DNA of 64,000 nucleotides from Arthrobacter sp. ERGS1:01 (GTDB lineage: Bacteria; Actinomycetota; Actinomycetes; Actinomycetales; Micrococcaceae): NCBI RefSeq assembly GCF_001281315.1, contig NZ_CP012479.1:310001-374000 (forward strand). Direction: 5' to 3'. Below are positions 9,017 to 49,599 of the stretch, piece after piece. A program made the translations under genes and the position numbers. The notes beneath the pieces are model-generated. The model worked only from the letters and a program-made list of their open reading frames with translations. It ran no database searches and was not told the DNA's origin. The first letter of the stretch is position 1. Each line of letters opens with the position of its first letter.

Positions 9017-9059
9017 CCGTCCAAGGTTACCGTCCCGTCGCGGCCCTGTACTACAATTG

Positions 9060-9145
9060 GCCGTGTTGCAACTGGCGATGAGGTGGGACACCACCGGGGA
9101 GTAACACGAGCGAAGACCTCACGATCGTACGCCTGGGACGAGAGG
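9060..9145 (+). ncRNA. Probable ZTP/ZMP (pfl) riboswitch upstream of glyA
   Basis: Features recalled for the pfl motif are present. A pairing GTTGC/GTAAC (9065-9069 with 9101-9105, one G-U) encloses ACTGGCGA, a hairpin 9082-9086/9091-9095 and the run CGGGGAG. After a linker the conserved 3' segment GCCTGGG lies at 9131-9137. glyA and folD are classic targets of this riboswitch, which senses the purine intermediate ZMP/ZTP when 10-formyl-THF is scarce. The downstream arms GGTGGAGG (9171-9178) and CCTCCACC (9248-9255) could pair as an expression platform. A covariance-model search would be decisive. Confidence 0.72.
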
Positions 9146-9308
9146 TCACGAACGCCAATGAATGATTGGCGGTGGAGGAAACCCGCACGCACTGCGGTGG
9201 AACATTACACAGGGTTTCACACAGTGGGCACACCAAGCATGGGCACGCCTCCACCGGATAATCTGGCCTAGAAGAGTTTGTTCGTGTCGTCCATCCAGGA
9301 GTCTTGAC

Positions 9309-49526: not shown

Positions 49527-49599
49527 GCCCCAGTAGCCCAATGGCAGAGGCAGTGGACTTAAAATCCATTCAGTGTCGGTTCGAGTCCGACCTGGGGTA
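49527..49599 (+). tRNA. tRNA with UAA anticodon, class I shape (Leu by anticodon)
   Basis: A 73-nt cloverleaf. The acceptor is GCCCCAG (49527-49533) with CTGGGGT (49592-49598), discriminator A99. The anticodon stem GTGGA/TCCAT holds loop CTTAAAA with anticodon TAA at 49560-49562. The T arm is GTCGG-TTCGAGT-CCGAC. The variable loop is only 5 nt (TCAGT), whereas bacterial tRNA-Leu normally has a long variable arm. The D stem has three good pairs and one mismatch. CCA is not encoded (CCG follows). The amino acid carried is therefore uncertain. Confidence 0.9.

What the first reader, a model, noticed from the sequence alone, without database searches (positions are those of the whole stretch)
49527..49599. 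Class-I-shaped tRNA carrying a UAA anticodon
Every arm is sound and the anticodon loop CTTAAAA places UAA at positions 34-36, which reads the Leu codon UUA. Yet the variable loop is 5 nt, while bacterial tRNA-Leu normally has a long variable arm, for example bldA in Streptomyces. UUA is very rare here; I noticed it in the permease (codon 522), ftsB (189) and mca (301). Either leucyl-tRNA synthetase accepts an unusual body, or another amino acid is inserted at UUA, or the tRNA has a regulatory role.
Basis: partly seen in the sequence, partly recalled or inferred. Interest (0 to 1): 0.75.

Follow-up and report, generated by a model that had tools for sequence, protein, structure and literature searches.

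The report
Leucine tRNA without its long arm
This bacterium reads the rare leucine codon UUA with a leucine tRNA that lacks the long extra arm textbooks expect, and the same short-armed body turns up in many actinobacteria, some other bacteria and many phages.

Summary
Window 49527-49599 (+) is a sound tRNA with anticodon UAA and a 5-nt variable loop, the only UAA tRNA among 52 found in its genome; the other four leucine tRNAs have the long arm. (1) It shares a five-feature core with the genome's four class II tRNA-Leu; none of the other 41 unique tRNAs has it, nor any of 1051 non-Leu tRNAs collected. (2) With the anticodon left free, this body matched viral contigs 246 times, always with a leucine anticodon (capped scans). 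(3) At UUA codons, related proteins carry leucine: 42 of 45 well-conserved columns in its genus. By pattern, 148 of 296 genomes of the class have a short-armed tRNA-Leu(UAA), 43 the long-armed one, none both, 105 neither; 163 match a short-armed tRNA-Leu(CAA) pattern. Phages carry it too. I saw no sign of a changed code; regulation was not tested. Ten open-access searches gave one passing report of a short-looped tRNA-Leu. Charging is inferred, not shown.

The parts
49527..49599 (+). class I tRNA-Leu(UAA), complete; the genomic bases after A73 are C, C, G, so the final A of CCA is not encoded
   Evidence: ARAGORN, Rfam, sequence
49527..49533 (+). acceptor stem 5' strand (1-7); G1 faces U72
49536..49551 (+). 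D arm: GCC/GGC stem, C13.A22 mismatch, loop A14 A15 U G18 G19 C20 A20a G
   Evidence: core shared with the four class II tRNA-Leu of the same genome
49560..49562 (+). anticodon UAA (reads UUA), in loop CUUAAAA
49570..49574 (+). variable loop UCAGU, 5 nt (class I); U48 would form the trans-Levitt pair with A15
   Evidence: A15-U48 in 143 of 147 unique sequences
49575..49591 (+). T arm, loop UUCGAGU
49592..49598 (+). acceptor stem 3' strand (66-72)
49599..49599 (+). discriminator base A73, a leucine identity element in E. coli
   Evidence: role from PMC9976931 passages

Best explanation
It is a genuine leucine tRNA that decodes UUA as leucine, built on a class I body. [quoted passage not shown] the long variable arm is not needed. 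Correlated changes against class II tRNA-Leu (mostly A9 for G9 and C13 for G13, opposite A22) suggest a core rebuilt to fold with a short loop. Shown here: sole UAA tRNA found, Leu core, Leu at UUA columns, body seen only with Leu anticodons, one bacterial LeuRS gene above cut-off. Inferred: expression, charging by that LeuRS, and need of the tRNA for UUA decoding.
For: This is the only UAA tRNA among 52. Five-feature core (A14 A15; 13.22 unpaired; D loop ending AG; U48; A73) in all five Leu tRNAs and in none of the other 41 unique tRNAs of the genome; over all sources class I Leu 430 of 454, class II Leu 62 of 79, other isotypes 0 of 1051. Body searched with the anticodon left free in viral contigs: 246 of 246 matches carry TAA 172, TAG 32, CAA 28, CAG 7, GAG 5 or AAG 2. 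UUA columns conserved at 80% or more: own genus 42 Leu, 2 Val, 1 Ser; other family members 25 Leu, 1 Ile, 1 Val. One leuS_bact match above cut-off, seven weaker ones below it. E. coli Leu identity uses A73, A15-U48, G18G19 and A20a but not the long arm, and variants missing anticodon arm and long arm stay active (PMC9976931, passages).
Against: No aminoacylation, expression or proteomic data. At UUA sites the majority residue was Leu in 64 of 91 genus sites against 194 of 224 for CTA; this is noisier, perhaps from wrong gene starts, so a minor second meaning is not strictly excluded. The alignments scored UUA as Leu, a small bias. Identity rules come from E. coli. [quoted passage not shown]
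Confidence: 0.93

Rival explanations
1. UUA is reassigned: another synthetase charges the class I body and inserts another amino acid.
For: A long arm, normal for bacterial tRNA-Leu, is missing; UUA is rare, which would ease reassignment. tRNA-Arg(CCU) of the same genome shares four of the five core features.
Against: Leu dominates UUA columns (122 Leu against at most 3 of any other residue at the 80% level over all sources; 42 of 45 in the genus). The body carried no non-Leu anticodon in 246 viral matches. The main text of the Codetta screen does not contain the word UUA (PMC8629427, find).
Confidence: 0.02
2. The tRNA is mainly regulatory, like bldA: low or timed supply holds back UUA-containing genes.
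For: Single UAA gene, rare codon, as in Streptomyces (bldA facts in PMC4255298, passages).
Against: A UUA occurs in a DivIC/FtsB-like cell division gene. The FEMS review says the broader developmental significance of bldA may not extend beyond Streptomycineae (passage). No expression data here, so not excluded as an added role.
Confidence: 0.05
3. Same function, different origin: the body came from another class I tRNA (for example one like tRNA-Arg(CCU), which also has C13.A22, A15 and U48) whose anticodon and D loop changed, rather than from a class II tRNA-Leu that lost its arm.
For: tRNA-Arg(CCU) shares four of five core features. Class I Leu differs from class II Leu at 9 and 13 as well as in the arm.
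Against: The D loop is identical to that of the class II tRNA-Leu(GAG) of the same genome. No tree was built; 73 nt carry little signal.
Confidence: 0.2

Closest known systems
Class II bacterial tRNA-Leu, including Streptomyces bldA tRNA-Leu(UAA)
   Same: Leu anticodon, A14 A15, G18 G19, A20a, U48, A73; single gene for a rare codon
   Different: variable loop 5 nt instead of a long arm; mostly A9 and C13 instead of G9 and G13
tRNA-Leu(TAG) with a short variable loop in a tRNA gene cluster of two mycobacteria, Mmuc and Mpho type strains (PMC6582537, passage)
   Same: short-looped tRNA-Leu in an actinobacterium
   Different: a second isoacceptor copy inside a tRNA cluster with an HNH endonuclease gene, beside a normal long-looped one; here it is the sole UAA tRNA. 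The paper's sequence was not compared
Human mitochondrial tRNA-Leu(UUR)
   Same: leucylated without a long arm through A73 and A14 (PMC9976931, passage)
   Different: organellar, partly unfolded anticodon branch, different synthetase
Nematode nev-tRNAs (PMC4033280, passages)
   Same: mismatch between arm class and anticodon box
   Different: the reverse: long-armed bodies with non-Leu anticodons
[quoted passage not shown]
   Same: Leu anticodon on a body without a long arm
   Different: closest to tRNA-Met and perhaps a silenced pseudogene; here the core is Leu-like and the gene is conserved

Membership tests
bacterial tRNA-Leu | anticodon for a leucine codon | tested here: met
   UAA at 34-36
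bacterial tRNA-Leu | discriminator A73 | tested here: met
bacterial tRNA-Leu | Leu hinge core: A14 A15, unpaired 13.22, G18 G19, A20a, U48 | tested here: met
   0 of 1051 non-Leu tRNAs have the full five-feature core
bacterial tRNA-Leu | codon read as leucine in proteins | tested here: met
   (comparative inference, not mass spectrometry)
bacterial tRNA-Leu | charged by LeuRS | not testable with these tools
   one LeuRS gene above cut-off
class II tRNA | long variable arm (10 nt or more) | tested here: not met
   5 nt
bldA-type regulatory tRNA | sole decoder of a rare UUA codon | tested here: met
bldA-type regulatory tRNA | growth-phase control of development | not tested
   no expression data
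allo-tRNA (8/4 or 9/3 acceptor arm) | acceptor/T arm other than 7/5 | tested here: not met
   7/5 geometry

The most novel reading that the evidence does not exclude
Class I tRNA-Leu is a separate, widely shared leucine tRNA lineage, spread by phages and mobile tRNA arrays with all leucine anticodons, which took over the UUA codon (and in about half of the sampled genomes also UUG) from class II tRNAs in actinobacterial chromosomes. Streptomyces-like genomes would belong to a minority that kept a long-armed UAA tRNA (bldA), while some of their phages bring a short-armed one of their own.
Probability: 0.35. Interest if true: 0.65.

Novelty: new variant of a known kind. Interest (0 to 1): 0.5.

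Why it matters
Reviews read here in passages give tRNA-Leu a long variable arm, and one states that bacterial tRNA genes lack structural diversity (PMC4033280). These results indicate that many actinobacteria and phages use leucine tRNAs without that arm. They are natural experiments on what LeuRS really reads, a warning for tools that infer identity from arm length, and a contrast for the bldA switch: where a UAA tRNA was detected by pattern in this class, its body was of another class than bldA's in 148 of 191 genomes.

Tried and rejected
Reassignment of UUA: rejected by the codon-column test.

A second, class II UAA tRNA in the genome: none among 52 tRNAs above cut-off; the two sub-threshold hits gave no tRNA in ARAGORN, and the class II pattern finds none in the own genome.

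my pattern was mis-spaced and failed even on the window's own tRNA, so its 0 of 296 means nothing. A corrected pattern was tried on the loci held (found in 30) and a widened form of it was run; that one still misses variants, since 105 of 296 genomes had no match. I tested 35 of those 105, plus two others, with a covariance model. ARAGORN on 50 loci (30 fetched by the tool, 20 by me) showed short-armed tRNA-Leu in 28 of the 35, with anticodon UAA in 16 of the 35 (one of them, L579, has a loop of about 8 nt). In 7 of the 35 (G315, G157, G196, G169, G187, G160, G166) I saw none; only for G157 and G187 did I read the best hit (tRNA-Lys).

Folding the single sequence (z = -2.1) mispairs the D arm and says little. 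The promoter scan found no sigma-70 site near the gene, also uninformative. One search was a script error, rerun as with 131 of 1925 tRNAs dropped in parsing. No phylogenetic tree was made.

Selection bias: most class I sequences were found with patterns fixing part of the D loop (the viral patterns also fix A9, C13 and A22); 67 that those D-loop motifs could not have picked still show A15-U48 in 64 and A73 in 65, but the full core in only 48.

Full report
What is there. The 73 bases at 49527-49599 (+) fold as a cloverleaf with a 7-bp acceptor stem, a 3-bp D stem extended by a C13.A22 mismatch, a 5-bp anticodon stem, a 5-nt variable loop (UCAGU) and a 5-bp T stem; the anticodon is UAA. The gene lies between a GNAT acetyltransferase gene and a Bax-inhibitor-like gene and is the only tRNA ARAGORN finds in the window. 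The genome (4.94 Mb, 3 contigs, completeness 100 by the tool) is probably an Arthrobacter: contig C15 of a same-genus genome, G022, is 506,775 bases long, the length of the Arthrobacter sp. H35-MC1 contig behind locus L206. That is an inference.

Is it the only one. A tRNA model search found 52 tRNAs above cut-off and two weak hits. ARAGORN was run on loci covering all of them. The set has class II bodies for Leu CAA, CAG, UAG and GAG, four Ser and one Tyr, and only this tRNA for UAA. One tRNA got no clear anticodon from ARAGORN (L039, a tRNA-Pro(GGG)-like body). By standard wobble rules (recalled) no other tRNA of the set reads UUA.

What identity does it carry. The review of tRNA identity (PMC9976931, passages) gives for E. 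[quoted passage not shown] This tRNA has all of them. I turned this into five features (A14 A15; 13.22 unpaired; D loop ending AG; U48; A73). In its own genome they occur together in 5 of 46 unique tRNAs: this one and the four class II tRNA-Leu. Over the tRNAs collected they occur in 430 of 454 unique class I Leu, 62 of 79 class II Leu and 0 of 1051 others, after 131 of 1925 were dropped in parsing. Most class I sequences were found with patterns that fix part of the D loop; in the 67 not selectable in that way A15-U48 holds in 64, A73 in 65 and the full core in 48.

The free-anticodon test. I searched IMG/VR viral contigs for the body with the anticodon unspecified, in two forms of the D stem (each stopped at 120 stretches). 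The 240 stretches hold 246 matches: TAA 172, TAG 32, CAA 28, CAG 7, GAG 5, AAG 2, and no other; ARAGORN gives the same but for one tRNA (TAG 31, GAG 6). Near-identical phages were not removed. A body paired with six leucine anticodons, and in this sample with nothing else, is best read as a leucine body.

What UUA means. I took up to 20 kb around the tRNA from 40 relatives, added positions 29001-64000 of the window and 119 other stretches, found genes by mutual similarity and asked what residue relatives have where one gene has UUA. In the genus 91 sites were testable; Leu was the majority in 64 and held 42 of 45 columns conserved at 80% or more (2 Val, 1 Ser). In 18 regions of other family members it was 40 of 52 and 25 of 27. 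Over all sources it was 188 of 280, with 122 Leu columns at the 80% level and at most 3 for any other residue. Control codons behave as expected in the genus: CTA 143 of 144 Leu, TTT 544 Phe against 13 others. UUA is noisier than CTA, perhaps because wrongly extended gene starts add sites. The alignments scored UUA as Leu, which favours Leu slightly.

How far it spreads. A 76-nt search hit 137 of 147 relatives; weak hits there may be other tRNAs. The 30 best loci, own included, are all class I tRNA-Leu(taa). In 296 genomes of the class a two-class pattern matched 191 and the class II form of it 43, each of those 43 having a single match. So by these patterns 148 have the short form (8 nt or less; those I could read nearly all 5-6, the list being truncated), 43 the long form, none both, 105 neither. 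All 27 genomes of family f37, which look like Streptomyces by size and by a bldA-like sequence (recalled), are long-form. In 35 of the 105 unmatched genomes a covariance model (25 sequences) and ARAGORN showed class I tRNA-Leu with UAA, CAA or UAG in 28, UAA in 16; 7 showed none. A pattern for class I tRNA-Leu(CAA) matched 163 of 296 genomes, 8 of the 27 in f37 among them (not all checked with ARAGORN). In the own genome CAA is class II.

Named hosts. A scan of named genomes stopped at 119 stretches. ARAGORN confirmed class I tRNA-Leu(taa) in all 80 listed there, from Mycobacterium, Nocardia, Rhodococcus, Gordonia, Corynebacterium, Bifidobacterium, Microbacterium, Nocardioides, Amycolatopsis, Streptosporangium and others. 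By record title 11 of the 119 are outside the Actinomycetota (Planctomycetota, Rokubacteria, Chloroflexi, Deltaproteobacteria, Cyanobacteria, Chthonomonadales, Acidobacteria) and two are unassigned. Several are metagenome bins whose labels may be wrong; the two cyanobacteria are not labelled as such. In tRNA arrays (L211, L148, L161, L220) class I bodies carry two or more leucine anticodons side by side; L148 also has two class II tRNA-Leu.

Phages. A search of 50,697 phage records gave 91 with a match at E 0.001 or better. Of the 14 stretches fetched, ARAGORN found class I tRNA-Leu(taa) in 10 and class I tRNA-Leu(tag) in the other 4 (Thermobifida P318, Enterobacter F1M1E, Bacillus BcoS-136, Streptomyces LukeCage); hosts include Synechococcus, Prochlorococcus, Myxococcus, Streptomyces, Rhodococcus, Pseudomonas, Lactobacillus, Bacillus and Acinetobacter.

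How it probably works. LeuRS should read A73 and the hinge and not need the missing arm. The genome has one bacterial LeuRS match above the family cut-off and seven weaker ones below it; the best-scoring solved relative is 1h3n, T. thermophilus LeuRS as I recall. The class I bodies differ from class II also at 9 (A in 432 of 454 against G in 77 of 79) and 13 (C in 440 of 454 against G in 60 of 79), as if the core had been rebuilt to fold with a short loop; this is inference. Expression, charging and modification were not tested.

What is known. In ten searches of open-access full texts I found no account of class I tRNA-Leu as a bacterial family. One paper reports a tRNA-Leu(TAG) with a short variable loop in a mycobacterial tRNA cluster (PMC6582537, passage). 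Another names tRNA-Leu-2, 3 and 5 of M. tuberculosis as having long loops (PMC11541572, passage), which is compatible with short-looped others but does not say so. The tRNAscan-SE 2.0 paper discusses an armless human tRNA-Leu-CAA as a likely Met-derived, perhaps silenced gene (PMC8450103, passage), a warning against trusting the anticodon alone. Subscription literature and tRNA databases could not be searched, so prior notice there is possible. I file it as a new variant of a known kind.

Noticed in passing
L584, L585, L588, L590, L591, L600 (family f35) and L601-L603, L610 (family f36): Class I tRNA-Leu(UAA) in these families has C33 instead of the near-universal U33 (loop CCTAAAA), in 10 loci. 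How such a tRNA decodes UUA is unexplained.
   Followed up: partly
L594 (G163) and one search matches in family f37: Streptomyces-like genomes with a long-armed UAA tRNA can have a short-armed tRNA-Leu(CAA): pattern match in 8 of 27 f37 genomes, one read in full.
   Followed up: partly
L275 1501-1575: Streptomyces phage CeilingFan carries a class I tRNA-Leu(UAA) although Streptomyces-like genomes here use a class II UAA tRNA; a possible way round host control of UUA decoding.
   Followed up: no
L211 6477-7937: A Chloroflexi MAG tRNA array encodes four tRNA-Leu (GAG, CAG, UAA, CAA), all with class I bodies.
   Followed up: no
window 9058-9145: ZMP/ZTP riboswitch (Rfam RF01750, 50.0 bits), just upstream of an ORF starting at 9162.
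   Followed up: no
L043 (own genome): tRNA-Arg(CCU) shares four of the five Leu core features, including C13.A22 and A15 with U48.
   Followed up: partly
L279 293-369, L284 301-373, L276 1501-1574: tRNA-Leu genes found by ARAGORN but not annotated in the phage records of LpeD, S-SRM01 and Thermobifida P318.
   Followed up: no
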